Assembly (NCBI GenBank): GCA_019241535.1
Contig: JAFAWX010000092.1
Coordinates: 1-45,710 of the forward strand
DNA: 45,710 nucleotides
Origin: Acidobacteriota bacterium
GTDB taxonomy: Bacteria; Acidobacteriota; Terriglobia; Terriglobales; Acidobacteriaceae
Direction: 5' to 3'
Part shown: positions 26,296-36,745 of the stretch, one piece after another
How positions within the stretch are numbered: position 1 is the stretch's first letter
How the letters are laid out: every line of letters begins with the position of its first letter
Notes under the pieces: model-generated
Seen by the model: the letters and a program-made list of their open reading frames with translations, nothing else
Told to the model about the DNA's origin: nothing
The model's database searches: none
Program-made: the position numbers and the translations under genes

Positions 26296-28635
26296 TTGGA
26301 CCAAGCAAGTCCCAACTGCAGCGAATATGTCTACTGGCGTGCGGAAGGCAGCCTACTCGAGCTGACTGCTGTCCGCCCTGTGGCATTTTTTACCTGGAAT
26401 GCCCAGACCTTCACCGAGCGATGGCTGCGGCGTGGGCTGGTGCTGCTGATCGCCGTGCTTCGTCCCTTCCTCTATGCCGCCAATCGCACTTTTGCCACCC
26501 GGGTTGTTTGCGCAGTCCTGCGGGGAACGAGCCGTGACCGCCTCGACCTCTTAGGAGAAGAGTATTTCCAGTATAAGTTAAAGCCTTACTTGAAGCCGGC
26601 GGGCGTGCGGCAACTGAACGAGCTGTTGAACTCAGGAGCGCGCGTCGTGGTCGTTAGCCAGGGCCTCGAACATGTCATGCGGCCGCTTGCCGAGCATCTG
26701 GGGGTCGAGAGAATTCTCGCCAATCGCTTGGAGTTTCGGGACGGGATATCGACCGGTCGCCTGCTGGAGCCGGTGATTCGCCCTCGCGGCCTCTTTGCCC
26801 GCCTCTCATCCGGAGATCACGACCCGGTCCGTTCGCGAGAGAAACTAGCCCGCGACCTTGGCGTGGCTGACCCTGCTGTGCTTGAAAAAGCAGTCATTCC
26901 CGCGACCCGGGTTGTCGCCAGATTCGGGCGTCCGCTGGTCGATTTCGGGGGGACTCGCCAGAATGCTCCGCTGCTGGTGCGATCGAGCCTTCGCGGCAAG
27001 CACGTCCTTCTGATCGGCGTGACCGGATTCATCGGCAAGGTTTGGCTGGCCAACGTCCTACTCGATTTGCCCGACGTCGGACGCATTTATCTTCTGATCA
27101 GGCGCCAGAAGTCAAATCCTGCGGGAAAGCGCTTTGAAAAAATTCTCCAGGAATCTCCTGTGTTTGATCGTTTATACGAGCGCCACGGAAAGAAACTCCT
27201 GCAGTTCCTCAGCCAGCGACTCGAGGTGGTAGAGGGCGACGTTTCCGAGCCGGGTCTGGGTTTGAACACGGACATGGCGGTATCGCTCGCGGCTAAACTC
27301 GATCTGATCGTTAACAGCTCCGGGCTCACCGACTTTAATCCTGACCTCCGCGACGCGCTGTCAACCAATGTCGATGCGGTGGGCAACCTGCTCGAATTCA
27401 TCCGCCAGTCCGATCATGCCGCGCTGCTTCACCTCTCTACCTGCTACGTAGCCGGGAAGCGCGACGGGCGGGTGGCCGAGAGTGTGCGCCCGGATTACAC
27501 CCCGGCCGGGCGCGAAGGCTTTGATTCCGAGCGCGAATGGAAAGCGTTGCATCAATTGGTCGAGGAGATAGAGAAGCTCGCCCAAAGCCCGGAAGTGACG
27601 GAGGAACTTCGACGACAGGCCCTGAGCAGAGAACATGCCGCCCGCAACCTGCATGGGGCGGCACTTGAGAACCAAACCCGCAAGAACCGCATGCGCTGGT
27701 TGCGCAGCGAGTTGACCCAGGCCGGCAAACGCCGCGCCCGGGAATTAGGCTGGCCAAATACCTACACCTTTACCAAGAGCCTGGCGGAATCCTTGCTTAC
27801 CAAGCTGGGCGCCGATCTTCCCATCGCCATCGTTCGCCCGGCAATCGTCGAGAGTTCGACGCTCGAGCCGTTTCGCGGCTGGAATGAAGGCATCAACACC
27901 TCGGCGTCCCTGTCCTATCTATTAGGTACCTACTTCCGCCAGCTGCCCACGAACGAGCGCAAACGCCTGGACATTGTTCCTGTCGACGCCGTCTGCCGGG
28001 GCATGACCCTCATAGCCGCAGCCCTGGTCGAGCGCCGTCATGAGCGCGTCTATCAGCTTGCCACCTCGGTCACGAACCCTTGCGATATGCGCCGCTCGAT
28101 TGAGCTAACGTCGCTTGCTCATCGCAAGCATTACCGCGCGCAGGAGGGAATGGAATCCTGGCTGCGTCTGCGCTTCGATGCCATACCGGTATCGAAGGAG
28201 CGCTATAACCGCATGTCGGCTCCGGCACAGCGTGCCATCATCAAGACGATTCAGCGCATAGCCGCTCCCCTGCCTCTCAAAAAGGCGCCGCTGGCAAAGG
28301 CCGACCGCAATCTCGAAAAGGTCGAAAAACTGATCGAGCTTTTCGAGCCCTTCATCCTGCACAACGAGCATGACTTCGTGGCGGAGAACATCGAACGGCT
28401 TTCTTACGCGCTGCTGCCCGGCGAGCGCGAGCAGTTTGGTTACGACACGGCCTCGCTCGACTGGTGGGAGTACTGGATCAATATTCACATTCCGGCACTG
28501 CGCAAGTGGACCTATCCCTTGATCGAGGGGCGTCCCATCGAAGTGCGGCCACCGCGTAACCTGGAGCCCCAGGACGCTCGCGAGTCTGAGACCCTCAAGA
28601 CCGGAACCAACGGAGCAACGTGGCGATATTCCTGA
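26296..28635 (+). CDS. Fatty acyl-CoA reductase-like protein with degenerate HAD N-terminal domain
   Basis: A 779-residue fusion opening the lipid operon. Residues 1-215 follow the HAD (IB-like) phosphatase layout, with [20 protein letters not shown] at 117-136 as the motif II region. The motif I site reads [10 protein letters not shown] (14-23) where DxDGT is expected, so the catalytic aspartates are replaced by Arg and Glu. From about 233 comes an extended SDR of the male-sterility/NAD-binding-4 type: GVTGFIGK (241-248), [13 protein letters not shown] (377-389) and the active-site YTFTK (Y490, K494). A C-terminal region of about 250 residues is typical of alcohol-forming reductases. Likely reaction: NAD(P)H reduction of an acyl thioester to aldehyde or alcohol. 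Start TTG 26296 with an AAGG-like site. Overlaps the next gene by 16 bp. Confidence 0.85.
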
Positions 28636-29753
28636 CCGGATCGACGGGTTACATCGGCGCGCACGTTGCCGCCAACCTCCTGGCGAATCATGCCGCATCG
28701 CTGAATCTGCTGGTCCGGGCACGCGACGCCCGCGAGGCCGAAGACCGCCTGTGGCGTGCCCTGCAGCTGCACCTGGATTTCAAGTTGTTCTACGAACTCC
28801 TGGAGACGCGTATCCGGATTTTTCGCGGCGATCTGACGACCGAAGGTTTTGGCCTGTCTACGGACGATTACGATCGCCTGGTGCACACCACTGATTCCGT
28901 CATCCACTGCGCCGCTTCGCTGAACCGGAAATCGGAAAAAAGCTGTCTGAACGTGAATCTGCGGGGTACGCTCGAGGTCATCAAGCTGGCGCTGAAGGTT
29001 GATCATTACCACGGACTGCGACGTTTCAGTTTGGTAAGCACGGTCGCCGTAGCCGGCGAGCGCCAGGACGAGCTGGTTACCGAGGATGGTGCCATCGACT
29101 GGAACCGCAGCGACTACGATCCTTACGGCCGCACCAAGAAGTTCTGCGAGCACATGATGCGCCAGCTCCTCCCCGAGATTCCCAAGACTATTTTTCGTCC
29201 CAGCATCGTGCTCGGCGACAGCCGCCGCCCGGAAACCACCCAATTTGACATGGTGCGAGCCTTCGTTTTTCTGGCCGGCCTGCGGGTCCTGCCGCTCCGC
29301 CCCCGTGACCGCGTGGATATCGTCAATGTGGATTTTGTCGCCGACGCTATTGCCACCTTGCACGTGAAGGATCGCACCGAACATGACACCTACCATCTTT
29401 CCTCAGGGCGCGATTCGCAGACGTTTCGGCAGATAACCCAGTCGCTCGCCGCCGCCCAGGACCGCCATGGACCAATTTACCTTCCGCTCGCCGGCAAACT
29501 GTTTGCCCGGGGCGTGGATATGGTGGCCAGGCGCAGAACTCCGCTTGGCCGCGAGGCCGCCCTGCTGAAGGTCTTCATGCCTTACCTCACTTTCAATACC
29601 ATCTTTGACAATACCCGCGTGACCACTGAAATCGGACGCCGGCCGGTGCCGTTTTCCCAATACAGTTATCCGCTCCTGAAATTCAGCCGGGAAGCCAACT
29701 TCAGCTATCCCTACCGTCCGTGGCCGGCCAAAGTGGGAGGCTCGGCGGCATGA
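28620..29753 (+). CDS. NAD-dependent SDR, male-sterility (NAD-binding-4) type
   Basis: A 377-residue extended short-chain dehydrogenase/reductase, GTG start inside the end of the preceding gene. The Rossmann motif is GSTGYIG (residues 7-13). Active-site Tyr169 and Lys173 lie in [22 protein letters not shown] carries the Ser/Thr. [13 protein letters not shown] and [13 protein letters not shown] complete the substrate-side pattern. It resembles thioester-reductase or fatty-acyl-reductase domains more than sugar epimerases. It could reduce an acyl intermediate or a 3-keto group made in this operon; the exact step is unknown. Its stop overlaps the next start (ATGA). Confidence 0.85.
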
Positions 29754-35785: not shown

Positions 35786-35833
35786 AGCGACGTCGCGGCG
35801 CAGGCTAGACCCGCGAAAAGAAACCGATTTTTC

Positions 35834-36745
35834 GTGCAAGGGAAAGACACAGACCGCCATCTTGCGATTTTTAATCCTGCTGCGGGTCGCGGGCGCTCCC
35901 GGCAACTCCTCGGGCCGGCACTTGATCGACTTCGTGCCGGCGGGCTGAAAATCGACATTCGCGAGACCACCGGCCCCGGGGCGGCCGGCGATCTCGCCCG
36001 GTCTGGCTGGATCGAAGGCTATCGTAAGTTCATCTCCGTGGGTGGAGATGGCACAAGCTATGAGATCGTGAACGGACTGTTTCCCCTGGCGAGCTCCGAG
36101 CGGCCGACACTTGCCTTTCTTCCGCTCGGTACAGGTAACTCGTTTCTGCGCGACTTCAGCGACCGAGGAGTGGCCTACGCGATCGAATCGCTGGTAAACG
36201 GGCGCTCGCGGAGCTGCGATGTTTTGCGCCTGCACCACGCCGCGGGCGTGCTGCACTACATCAATATCCTGAGCGTGGGATTTTCCGCCGACGTGGCGAC
36301 ATTGCGCGCGCGCCGTTTCCGGCGCTGGGGGGAGATCGGTTACCAGCTTGCCATCTTCGTCTCTCTCGTGCGCCTCCGCCGCCGCCCGTTCCCCCTCCGA
36401 GTGGATGGTCAAGCTGACACGGACCACCGCCCCTGCCTGTTCCTAACCTTCAACAACACTAAATTCACCGGCGGTACCATGATGATCGCACCTACTGCCA
36501 ACTCCGATGACGGTCTCATCGAATACGTACGCTGGGGCCCCATCGGTCGTCTGGGACTGATTCGCAATCTGCCCGGACTTTATGATGGTACCCACATCCG
36601 GCACCCGCTGGCAGAAGTGCGCAAGGCAAAGCGCATCGACTTCGAGCTCGATAAGCCGCTCGACGTGATGATCGATGGGGAAGTACTCAGCCTCGGTTGT
36701 CGCAGCCTGGACGTGCTGCCGGGCGCGCTTAATGTCATGGTGTGA
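35834..36745 (+). CDS. Diacylglycerol kinase / sphingosine kinase-family lipid kinase (YegS-like)
   Basis: A 303-residue soluble lipid kinase starting at GTG 35834. LAIFNPAAGRGRSRQ (residues 10-24), the nucleotide loop SVGGDGTSYEIVNGL (68-82) and LPLGTGNSFLRDF (96-108) are the three catalytic-domain signatures. The C-terminal beta-domain (from about residue 130) has NNTKFTGGTMMIAPTANSDD and ends DVMIDGEVL. It phosphorylates a lipid hydroxyl with ATP. Here the likely substrate is the lipid made by the upstream genes (a diacyl-, alkylacyl- or long-chain alcohol species), which is inferred. It closes the lipid part of the operon; the next gene begins 11 bp downstream. Confidence 0.9.
   Translation: MQGKDTDRHLAIFNPAAGRGRSRQLLGPALDRLRAGGLKIDIRETTGPGAAGDLARSGWIEGYRKFISVGGDGTSYEIVNGLFPLASSERPTLAFLPLGTGNSFLRDFSDRGVAYAIESLVNGRSRSCDVLRLHHAAGVLHYINILSVGFSADVATLRARRFRRWGEIGYQLAIFVSLVRLRRRPFPLRVDGQADTDHRPCLFLTFNNTKFTGGTMMIAPTANSDDGLIEYVRWGPIGRLGLIRNLPGLYDGTHIRHPLAEVRKAKRIDFELDKPLDVMIDGEVLSLGCRSLDVLPGALNVMV

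What the first reader, a model, noticed from the sequence alone, without database searches (positions are those of the whole stretch)
26296..36745. Uncharacterised lipid biosynthesis operon with its own ACP, two acyl ligases, two reductases and a lipid kinase
Eight same-strand genes overlap or are separated by at most about 82 bp: FAR-like reductase, SDR reductase, pyruvyl transferase-family protein, acyl ligase, enoyl hydratase, ACP, second acyl ligase, DAG-kinase-like protein. Seen directly: the motifs of each family and the spacing. Known: these families activate, carry, hydrate, reduce and phosphorylate acyl chains. Inferred: together they build a non-standard lipid such as a fatty alcohol, ether lipid or glycolipid. 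Acidobacteria are known for ether-bound and iso-diabolic-acid lipids. There is no ketosynthase, so chains would come from primary metabolism.
Basis: partly seen in the sequence, partly recalled or inferred. Interest (0 to 1): 0.85.

Follow-up and report, generated by a model that had tools for sequence, protein, structure and literature searches.

The report
Soil Acidobacteriota ether-lipid operon candidate
A tightly conserved ten-gene operon in uncultured soil and peat Acidobacteriota looks like a taken-apart relative of the myxobacterial ether-lipid (Elb) cluster and sometimes sits beside a tetraether-synthase-like gene, so it may be how these bacteria make the ether bonds of lipids used as climate proxies.

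Summary
Eight intact same-strand genes lie at 26296-36745, and the run continues through a thioredoxin-like and a VKOR gene to 37643. Of 80 named Acidobacteriota loci, 55 hold all eight genes and 53 of those keep one order and strand.

Its N-terminus is an ElbB-type HAD domain whose nucleophile Asp is Arg in 70 of 70 rows. Its FAR domain nests among FARs of Acidobacteriota ElbD proteins. Kinases like gene 8 lie beside ElbD in 7 other genomes and within 1.3 kb of a lone FAR in 3. A tetraether-synthase (Tes)-like gene lies upstream in 7 of 50 testable loci; FAR-bearing genomes carry one more often than others (37/39 against 101/208).

Best reading: a split, Elb-related alkyl-ether-lipid pathway. 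It lacks ElbD's acyltransferase and the LarA-like ElbC-position gene, and adds a pyruvyltransferase-like protein, a hydratase and a second ligase. The ether-forming step is not identified and no lipid was measured. New variant of a known kind.

The parts
26296..28635 (+). Gene 1 (P0001, 779 aa): N-terminal HAD-type domain with lost nucleophile, fused to a fatty acyl reductase of the alcohol-forming type (NAD_binding_4 + Sterile)
   Evidence: Pfam; FAR GxTGFIGK 70/70 rows and YxxxK 68/70, HAD nucleophile position Arg 70/70 against Asp in 10/10 ElbB-like rows (68 of the 70 rows are distinct); FAR trees
28620..29753 (+). Gene 2 (P0002, 377 aa): extended SDR / thioester-reductase-type NAD_binding_4 protein
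   Evidence: Pfam; at E<=1e-25 found in 9 of 247 genomes: 64-72% identity in the 6 other operon genomes, three further matches at 30-35%
29720..31159 (+). Gene 3 (P0003, 479 aa): CsaB / polysaccharide pyruvyltransferase-family protein
   Evidence: PF04230 33.3 bits over cut-off 25.3; TIGR03609 60.7 bits, far below its cut-off 213.1; SxRxH motif 83/83 rows
31221..32903 (+). Gene 4 (P0004, 560 aa): AMP-forming acyl ligase, best NCBIfam match FadD11-like (below cut-off), with AMP-binding_C_3
   Evidence: ligase motif A3 in 72/76 rows, YGLTE 76/76
32929..33738 (+). Gene 5 (P0005, 269 aa): enoyl hydratase/isomerase with both catalytic Glu
   Evidence: Pfam; both Glu motifs in 64/64 rows
33742..33993 (+). 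Gene 6 (P0006, 83 aa): stand-alone acyl carrier protein
   Evidence: PF00550; phosphopantetheine Ser in 67/67 rows
34073..35785 (+). Gene 7 (P0007, 570 aa): second AMP-forming acyl ligase
   Evidence: motif A3 in 54/60 rows, YGLTE-type motif 60/60
35834..36745 (+). Gene 8 (P0008, 303 aa): YegS/DAGK-type lipid kinase
   Evidence: Pfam; GGDGT 55/55 rows; relatives directly beside ElbD in 7 genomes and 1.0-1.3 kb from a lone FAR in 3
36742..37167 (+). Gene 9 (P0009, 141 aa): membrane segment plus thioredoxin-like WCxxC
   Evidence: translated; WCxxC 25/25 rows; present in 52 of the 55 loci with genes 1-8, colinear in 50
37152..37643 (+). Gene 10: VKOR-family membrane protein
   Evidence: PF07884; its cluster is found in 45 of 87 locus records, two pairs of which are the same contig

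Best explanation
It is an operon for an alkyl-ether (fatty-alcohol-derived) glycerolipid, sharing descent in part with the Elb ether-lipid cluster. Proposed working: (1) the two ligases (genes 4, 7) activate fatty acids, probably iso-branched, and load them on the dedicated ACP (gene 6) [family knowledge; the iso-branched guess is inference]; (2) the FAR (gene 1) reduces the acyl thioester to a fatty alcohol or aldehyde, and the SDR (gene 2) does a second reduction of an aldehyde or keto intermediate [family knowledge; its place in the order is inferred]; the HAD half of gene 1 no longer acts as a phosphatase and has become a structural or binding module [loss of the nucleophile is shown at sequence level; the rest is inferred]; (3) the alkyl chain is joined to a three-carbon glycerol unit by an ether bond in a step whose enzyme is not identified, as is also the case for Elb [inference]; (4) the kinase (gene 8) phosphorylates the alkylglycerol so that ordinary acyltransferases and head-group enzymes can finish the lipid [inference]; (5) gene 3 modifies or builds a polar group, perhaps with PEP [inference]; genes 9-10 supply disulfide chemistry at the membrane [inference]. 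Tes-like radical SAM enzymes of the same genomes may then couple two tails into iso-diabolic / tetraether-type membrane-spanning lipids [inference from linkage and co-occurrence].
For: Order conserved in 53 of 55 complete loci; gene 3 present in 100 of 348 genomes of the family, 33 of 79 genera. In the 247-genome phylum sample P0001 matches 40 genomes at E<=1e-10; without G074, whose match is a gene-2-like SDR, these are the 7 operon genomes and 32 others, most with a FAR at the start of an ORF of about 1440-1520 aa. The one such ORF scanned by Pfam (L135) reads FAR-ligase-ACP-acyltransferase, the layout printed for ElbD (PMC9131029, PMC9426513; passages). P0001's HAD half matches a separate HAD gene on the same contig and strand within about 10 kb of the FAR in 18 of those 32. 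FAR tree (12 operon, 11 ElbD, 3 lone FAR rows, Streptomyces outgroup): operon clade 100/100, joined at 100/99 with 6 ElbD and the 3 lone FARs, the other 5 ElbD outside; holding all ElbD and lone FARs apart from the operon is rejected, AU p 0.003, a group chosen. Gene-8-like kinase directly beside ElbD in 7 genomes and 1.0-1.3 kb from a lone FAR in 3. Tes-like gene (best PDB match GDGT-MAS 7tol, E 1.7e-60) upstream in 7 of 50 named loci with at least 4 kb upstream, 266 bp away in L108, and about 150 bp before gene 1 in L023. FAR-bearing genomes with a Tes-like gene 37/39 against 101/208, Fisher p 1e-8; family level 14/16 against 29/56, p 0.011. No HGD-D (PF06050) domain of the GeR/PlsA route in 6 of 7 operon genomes; G062 has a fragment.
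Against: No lipid data. No identified ether-forming enzyme. No acyltransferase in the operon. The LarA-like gene of elb clusters is missing, and gene 2's profile does not match the epimerase-type SDR of L135 and only weakly that of L140. ElbD FAR activity itself has not been shown in vitro (PMC9131029, passage). The ligase tree does not tie either ligase to ElbD. Tes-like genes occur in all 26 sampled genomes of the family whether or not they have the operon, so co-occurrence there is not specific; 43 of 50 loci show no Tes-like gene upstream. Of the 29 lower-scoring gene-8-like kinases, 22 are not beside a FAR. The FAR trees have only Acidobacteriota rows plus one Streptomyces FAR or distant SDRs as outgroup. 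In some searches at most four candidates per genome were scored, so second copies may be missed.
Confidence: 0.58

Rival explanations
1. The operon makes a fatty-alcohol or wax-type or glycolipid product without an ether bond: FAR makes fatty alcohol, gene 3 pyruvylates a sugar head group, the kinase recycles diacylglycerol.
For: FAR and pyruvyltransferase-type families are known from such pathways (family knowledge). A GT87-type gene follows in 26 of 87 locus records, though on the other strand, and an esterase in 45 of 87.
Against: FAR nests among ElbD-type FARs; kinase relatives beside ElbD; no wax-ester synthase among the operon and flank proteins scanned by Pfam.
Confidence: 0.22
2. It is a sphingolipid-like pathway: ACP, ligase, SDR and kinase resemble the bacterial ceramide gene set (recalled).
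For: Parts list overlaps: ACP, acyl ligase, NAD-dependent reductase, DAGK-type kinase.
Against: No serine palmitoyltransferase-type (class II aminotransferase) match among the operon and neighbour proteins scanned; the FAR has no role there. A genome-wide search for such a gene was not made.
Confidence: 0.06
3. It is a catabolic or salvage operon that activates and modifies exogenous fatty acids (ligases, hydratase) rather than building a lipid.
For: Two ligases and an enoyl hydratase are also beta-oxidation parts.
Against: No acyl-CoA dehydrogenase or thiolase match among the operon and neighbour proteins scanned by Pfam; a dedicated ACP with its Ser in 67/67 rows, a FAR and a lipid kinase are biosynthetic parts.
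Confidence: 0.07
4. It is a true, if rearranged, elb operon with the same chemistry and product as in Myxococcus (alkyl-ether phospholipid), not a separate variant.
For: Shared FAR, ligase, ACP, HAD-type and SDR domain types.
Against: Lacks the acyltransferase and the LarA-like gene; the HAD has lost its nucleophile; adds genes 3, 5 and a second ligase.
Confidence: 0.07

Closest known systems
elb (ether lipid biosynthesis) cluster of Myxococcus xanthus and its Acidobacteriota counterparts (ElbB HAD, ElbC, ElbD FAR-ACS-ACP-AGPAT, ElbE SDR)
   Same: FAR domain groups among Acidobacteriota ElbD FARs; HAD-type, ligase, ACP and SDR parts; kinase beside ElbD in 7 genomes
   Different: Parts are separate proteins; HAD fused to FAR and lacking its nucleophile; no acyltransferase, no LarA-like gene; extra pyruvyltransferase-like protein, enoyl hydratase, second ligase, thioredoxin-like and VKOR genes. 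Elb-like clusters in sponge-associated Acidobacteriota are already in print (PMC9426513, passages).
HAD - LarA-like - stand-alone FAR - kinase clusters of other Acidobacteriota families (L138, L139, L140)
   Same: Stand-alone FAR, HAD domain type, epimerase-type SDR in L139 and L140, gene-8-like kinase
   Different: HAD separate, with its motif-I Asp in L138 and L139; LarA-like protein present; no match to the operon's ACP, ligase or gene 3 profiles in the fetched stretch
GeR / PlsA anaerobic ester-to-ether reduction
   Same: Proposed outcome (alkyl ether lipids)
   Different: Different enzymes; HGD-D domain PF06050 absent from 6 of 7 operon genomes
Tes / GDGT-MAS (MJ0619-type) tetraether synthase
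   Same: A homologue lies upstream of the operon in some loci (7tol match E 1.7e-60)
   Different: No such gene seen upstream in 43 of 50 testable loci; on another contig (C197) in the window's genome
Plasmalogen/ether route by FAR1-GNPAT-AGPS
   Same: FAR-made fatty alcohol as ether precursor would be shared
   Different: No AGPS-type gene in the operon; genome-wide presence not tested

Membership tests
Elb ether-lipid cluster | ElbD: one protein with FAR, acyl ligase, ACP and AGPAT-type acyltransferase domains | tested here: not met
   FAR, ligase and ACP are separate genes, no acyltransferase in the run; P0001 is the only FAR match found in the genome, with 4 of 6 candidates scored
Elb ether-lipid cluster | FAR domain of ElbD type | tested here: met
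   Operon FAR clade lies among Acidobacteriota ElbD FARs; AU p 0.003 against holding all ElbD and lone FARs apart from it, group chosen after a first tree; M. xanthus ElbD itself not included
Elb ether-lipid cluster | ElbB: HAD-type phosphohydrolase | tested here: inconclusive
   Homologous domain present as a fusion, nucleophile Asp replaced by Arg in 70/70 rows
Elb ether-lipid cluster | ElbC-position gene (LarA-like in Acidobacteriota) | tested here: not met
   tblastn of six such proteins against loci L018-L110 finds nothing at 1e-8; the window was not in that search, but its run has no unassigned gene
Elb ether-lipid cluster | ElbE: NAD-dependent epimerase/dehydratase | tested here: inconclusive
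   Gene 2 is of the same broad superfamily (PF01370 1.2e-14, best match PF07993), but its profile does not hit the epimerase-type SDR of L135 at 1e-3 and hits that of L140 only at 2e-6
Elb ether-lipid cluster | Product: alkyl or vinyl ether lipids | not testable with these tools
   Needs lipidomics
GeR/PlsA ester-to-ether route | HGD-D (PF06050) domain protein in the genome | tested here: not met
   None in 6 of 7 operon genomes, one fragment in G062; of 5 other genomes searched only G131 has it; the control rings in 2 of 14 genomes
Polysaccharide pyruvyltransferase / CsaB (gene 3) | PF04230 above its cut-off and SxRxH motif (motif role recalled) | tested here: met
   33.3 bits over 25.3; 83/83 rows
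Polysaccharide pyruvyltransferase / CsaB (gene 3) | CsaB equivalog score TIGR03609 | tested here: not met
   60.7 bits against cut-off 213.1
Bacterial ceramide pathway | Serine palmitoyltransferase-type gene | tested here: inconclusive
   No match among operon and neighbour proteins scanned; whole genome not searched
Tes / GDGT-MAS | Radical SAM with HMPTM zinc ribbon, homologous to 7tol (applies to the linked gene, not the operon) | tested here: met
   PF04055 + PF23545 in L023 and L095; L023 protein against 7tol E 1.7e-60

The most novel reading that the evidence does not exclude
Together with the Tes-like coupling enzyme, this operon is the oxygen-tolerant pathway by which uncultured Terriglobia-type soil and peat Acidobacteriota make ether-bound iso-diabolic / brGDGT lipids, a route that uses neither GeR/PlsA nor ElbD, and in which the PEP-motif pyruvyltransferase-like protein (gene 3) takes part in building or modifying the three-carbon unit that carries the alkyl chain, so that the ether bond arises by chemistry not yet described.
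Probability: 0.2. Interest if true: 0.92.

Novelty: new variant of a known kind. Interest (0 to 1): 0.7.

Why it matters
Branched tetraether lipids from soils and peat are climate proxies, yet the enzymes that make their ether bonds in Acidobacteriota are unresolved (PMC10087280, PMC11868695, PMC13274423; passages). The operon's marker gene 3 is in 100 of 348 sampled genomes of one family, none of which has fewer than 20 contigs, so cultured strains that were lipid-profiled may lack it. It gives a defined gene set to express or delete. By comparison it also points to a core shared with elb clusters (FAR, ligase, ACP, HAD-type module, in several families a kinase), which narrows the search for the unknown ether-forming step of Elb itself.

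Tried and rejected
HAD motif: I first read the motif-I region as FFTWNAQ (notes).

Gene 3 as ElbC: rejected. The ElbC-position gene of Acidobacteriota elb clusters is LarA-like (PF09861); gene 3 is PF04230. The 555-aa insert in L022 (5994-7658) shows no similarity to it either.

Ligase phylogeny: not informative; long branches, no broad outgroup; neither ligase could be tied to ElbD. 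The nearby ACS-ACP-PlsC gene (window 18583-21372) has no match above 40% identity in loci L018-L110.

PDB profile search for gene 3: no match at 0.01 and one meaningless match at 0.74. Promoter/terminator scan: 2 promoter-like sites against a shuffle mean of 3.5, both on the other strand; 18 terminator-like sites against 12.1 (sd 3.6); not used. In one search one of my motif patterns for gene 4 (A8) fitted only 1 of 76 rows; it was a poor pattern and is not used. The ACP pattern there fitted 59 of 67; the aligned Ser is in 67 of 67.

Co-occurrence counts were read by hand from the listings; G074 was dropped because its match is a gene-2-like SDR; with it the counts are 38/40 against 100/207, p 5e-9. 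The family-level test takes 72 families, the highest code seen; the listings are cut, so the true total may be higher. Genomes of one family are not independent. L018 and L043, and L019 and L105, are the same contigs (equal lengths), so row counts and the profile sets hold two repeats (68 distinct of 70 for gene 1).

Full report
WHAT IS THERE. The window is contig C154 of a 4.95 Mb, 425-contig genome. Ten same-strand genes run from 26296 to 37643: HAD-FAR fusion, SDR, pyruvyltransferase-family protein, acyl ligase, enoyl hydratase, ACP, acyl ligase, YegS/DAGK-type kinase, a thioredoxin-like protein and a VKOR protein. Neighbours overlap or lie within 79 bp with the listed starts. The phylum name rests on relatives: genome G084, of the same family code, has a contig of the same length and layout (164541 bases) as the named record PLDC01000004.1, an Acidobacteriaceae MAG.

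CONSERVATION. Gene 3 was searched in 247 genomes drawn evenly from the phylum: 8 match at 1e-10, of which 7 have a close copy (the window's own genome and six at 64-75% identity) in four family codes (f1, f37, f60, f70); the other matches are at 36% (a second copy in G062) and 28% (G131). In the family itself 100 of 348 genomes and 33 of 79 genera match at 1e-50. A scan of GTDB genome contigs with alignment A1 confirmed 340 relatives, of which the tool kept the best 80; these 80 titles name Acidobacteriota or their subgroups (gp1, Ca. Sulfotelmatobacter, Terriglobia, one Blastocatellia), and 22 of the 80 carry the words palsa, bog or fen. tblastn of genes 1-9 on these 80 and a count: 55 loci hold genes 1-8, 53 of them colinear on one strand; 52 of the 55 also have gene 9, 50 colinear. 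L096 and L100 hold two blocks, the second inverted. In G062 and G132 genes 6-8 sit on another contig. So the system is two modules, 1-4 and 6-8 with gene 5 in between, and these genomes that have parted them keep both. L109 (Blastocatellia) shows only genes 1-4 in its 21 kb, and G092 has a close gene 8 (53%) without genes 1-3. Catalytic motifs are kept: FAR Rossmann 70/70, YxxxK 68/70, SDR Rossmann 66/67, SxRxH of gene 3 83/83, ligase A3 motif 72/76 and 54/60, both crotonase Glu 64/64, GGDGT 55/55, WCxxC 25/25, ACP Ser 67/67.

THE LINK TO ELB. P0001 was searched in the same 247 genomes (at most four candidates per genome were scored). 40 genomes match at 1e-10; G074's is a gene-2-like SDR and is dropped. 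The remaining 39 are the 7 operon genomes and 32 with FARs of 28-38% identity, most at the start of ORFs of about 1440-1520 aa (lone FARs in G131, G095, G188; a split 1174-aa case in G238). The one such ORF scanned by Pfam, in L135, reads NAD_binding_4, Sterile, AMP-binding, PP-binding, Acyltransferase, the printed ElbD layout (PMC9131029 and PMC9426513, passages); others show FAR plus ligase by profile. Its neighbours are, in order, a HAD gene, a LarA-like gene, ElbD and an epimerase-type SDR, matching elbB-C-D-E; a small 178-aa ORF also lies between. The first 162 residues of P0001 match the separate HAD gene, on the same contig and strand within about 10 kb of the FAR in 18 of the 32, and on another contig in two. 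So gene 1 equals ElbB-type HAD plus ElbD-type FAR in one chain. The HAD half has lost its nucleophile: Asp in 10 of 10 ElbB-like rows, Arg in 70 of 70 operon rows. In the FAR trees (12 operon, 11 ElbD, 3 lone FAR rows) the operon rows form one clade among ElbD rows, whether rooted on SDRs or on a Streptomyces FAR: joined with 6 ElbD and the 3 lone FARs, with 5 ElbD outside, 4 of which have the kinase. Holding all ElbD and lone FARs apart from the operon costs 31.6 log units, AU p 0.003, the group having been chosen after the first tree. Kinases resembling gene 8 lie directly beside ElbD in seven genomes (G008, G104, G148, G156, G164, G172, G242) and 1.0-1.3 kb from the lone FAR in L138-L140; 22 of the 29 lower-scoring kinases are not beside a FAR. 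No genome of the 247 shows both the operon and an ElbD-type FAR; with 7 and 32 genomes this is not telling by itself.

THE LINK TO TETRAETHERS. In L023 a radical SAM gene ends about 150 bp before gene 1. Its best solved match is the archaeal GDGT-MAS (Tes), 7tol, E 1.7e-60. A homologue lies upstream of gene 1 in 7 of the 50 named loci that have at least 4 kb upstream (L056, L058, L074, L086, L095, L108, and L093 on the other strand; L074 and L093 are cut by the locus end), 266 bp away in L108, and also in L021 and L023. With about one such gene per genome, chance would give roughly 0.1 of 50 (my estimate from genome size; related loci are not independent). In the phylum sample 138 of 247 genomes have a homologue at 1e-30; among FAR-bearing genomes 37 of 39, among the rest 101 of 208 (Fisher p 1e-8; outside f1 33/35 against 79/186, p 3e-9; family level 14/16 against 29/56, p 0.011, counts read by hand). 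Against a specific link: all 26 sampled f1 genomes have one, with or without the operon; G062 has only a distant one; G131 and G238 have a FAR without it. The window's genome has one, on contig C197. The HGD-D domain of the GeR/PlsA route is absent from 6 of 7 operon genomes.

HOW IT PROBABLY WORKS. Shown: gene set, order, motifs, kinship of the FAR, loss of the HAD nucleophile, linkage. From family knowledge: ligases and ACP activate and carry acyl chains; the FAR gives fatty alcohol (with isolated ElbD no fatty alcohol was detected, PMC9131029, passage); the kinase phosphorylates a neutral lipid. Inferred: the alkyl chain becomes ether-bound to a glycerol unit; the kinase returns alkylglycerol to the phospholipid pathway; gene 3 uses PEP or acts on a head group; Tes-like enzymes may couple tails. 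The ether-forming step stays open, for Elb as well. If both systems make ethers, the parts they share (FAR, ligase, ACP, HAD-type module, kinase in several families) are candidates for the essential core.

LITERATURE. Searches listed no description of this operon; only open-access papers are held, and I saw listings plus passages of five papers. PMC10087280 (passages) says that S. usitatus lacks ElbD, that several subdivision-4 genomes hold the elb operon, and proposes PlsAR plus Tes for S. usitatus; PMC11868695 (passages) calls the Acidobacteria pathway unclear; PMC13274423 (2026, passages) builds on Mss and Ger. The original Elb paper (Lorenzen 2014) was not read.

VERDICT. A real, conserved operon, best read as a split Elb-related ether-lipid system, with moderate confidence; a new variant of a known kind that makes an open question testable.

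Noticed in passing
L135:9246-10844, L138:6893-8644, L139:7461-9128, L140:1223-3106: The gene in the ElbC position of Acidobacteriota elb-type clusters is a LarA-like (lactate racemase N-terminal domain, PF09861) protein, 58-80% identical among six loci; ElbC is called unknown in the 2022 review (passages). In paper search the ten listed rows of 230 each show no use of the word ElbC.
   Followed up: partly
window 18583-21372 (- strand): A 930-aa ligase-ACP-PlsC protein, like ElbD without its FAR domain; no close copy in loci L018-L110.
   Followed up: partly
window 24681-26009: An MFS transporter upstream on the same strand; its cluster has members upstream of gene 1 in 21 other locus records, and a shikimate-kinase-like gene cluster has members in 13.
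   Followed up: no
L022:5994-7658: A 555-aa protein with no Pfam match sits between genes 1 and 2 in genome G235.
   Followed up: partly
window 12402-14310: Two tandem phage-integrase-family recombinases after a DUF72 protein and a LigD primase-polymerase-type gene.
   Followed up: no
L021:4690-6366: A second radical SAM gene directly after the Tes-like gene and upstream of the operon in genome G132; only weak matches to solved structures.
   Followed up: partly
L018:13956-15398: A myo-inositol-1-phosphate synthase directly upstream of gene 1 in genome G084.
   Followed up: no
L198:2419-5301: A 960-aa Streptomyces plasmid ORF holding a FAR domain (27.7% to P0001) and about 270 further residues after the match; no feature listed there in PLSDB.
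   Followed up: no
L024:8488-10074: A gene-3 paralogue (about 35% identity) in genome G062 beside a PocR/PAS sensor kinase and an MFS transporter.
   Followed up: partly
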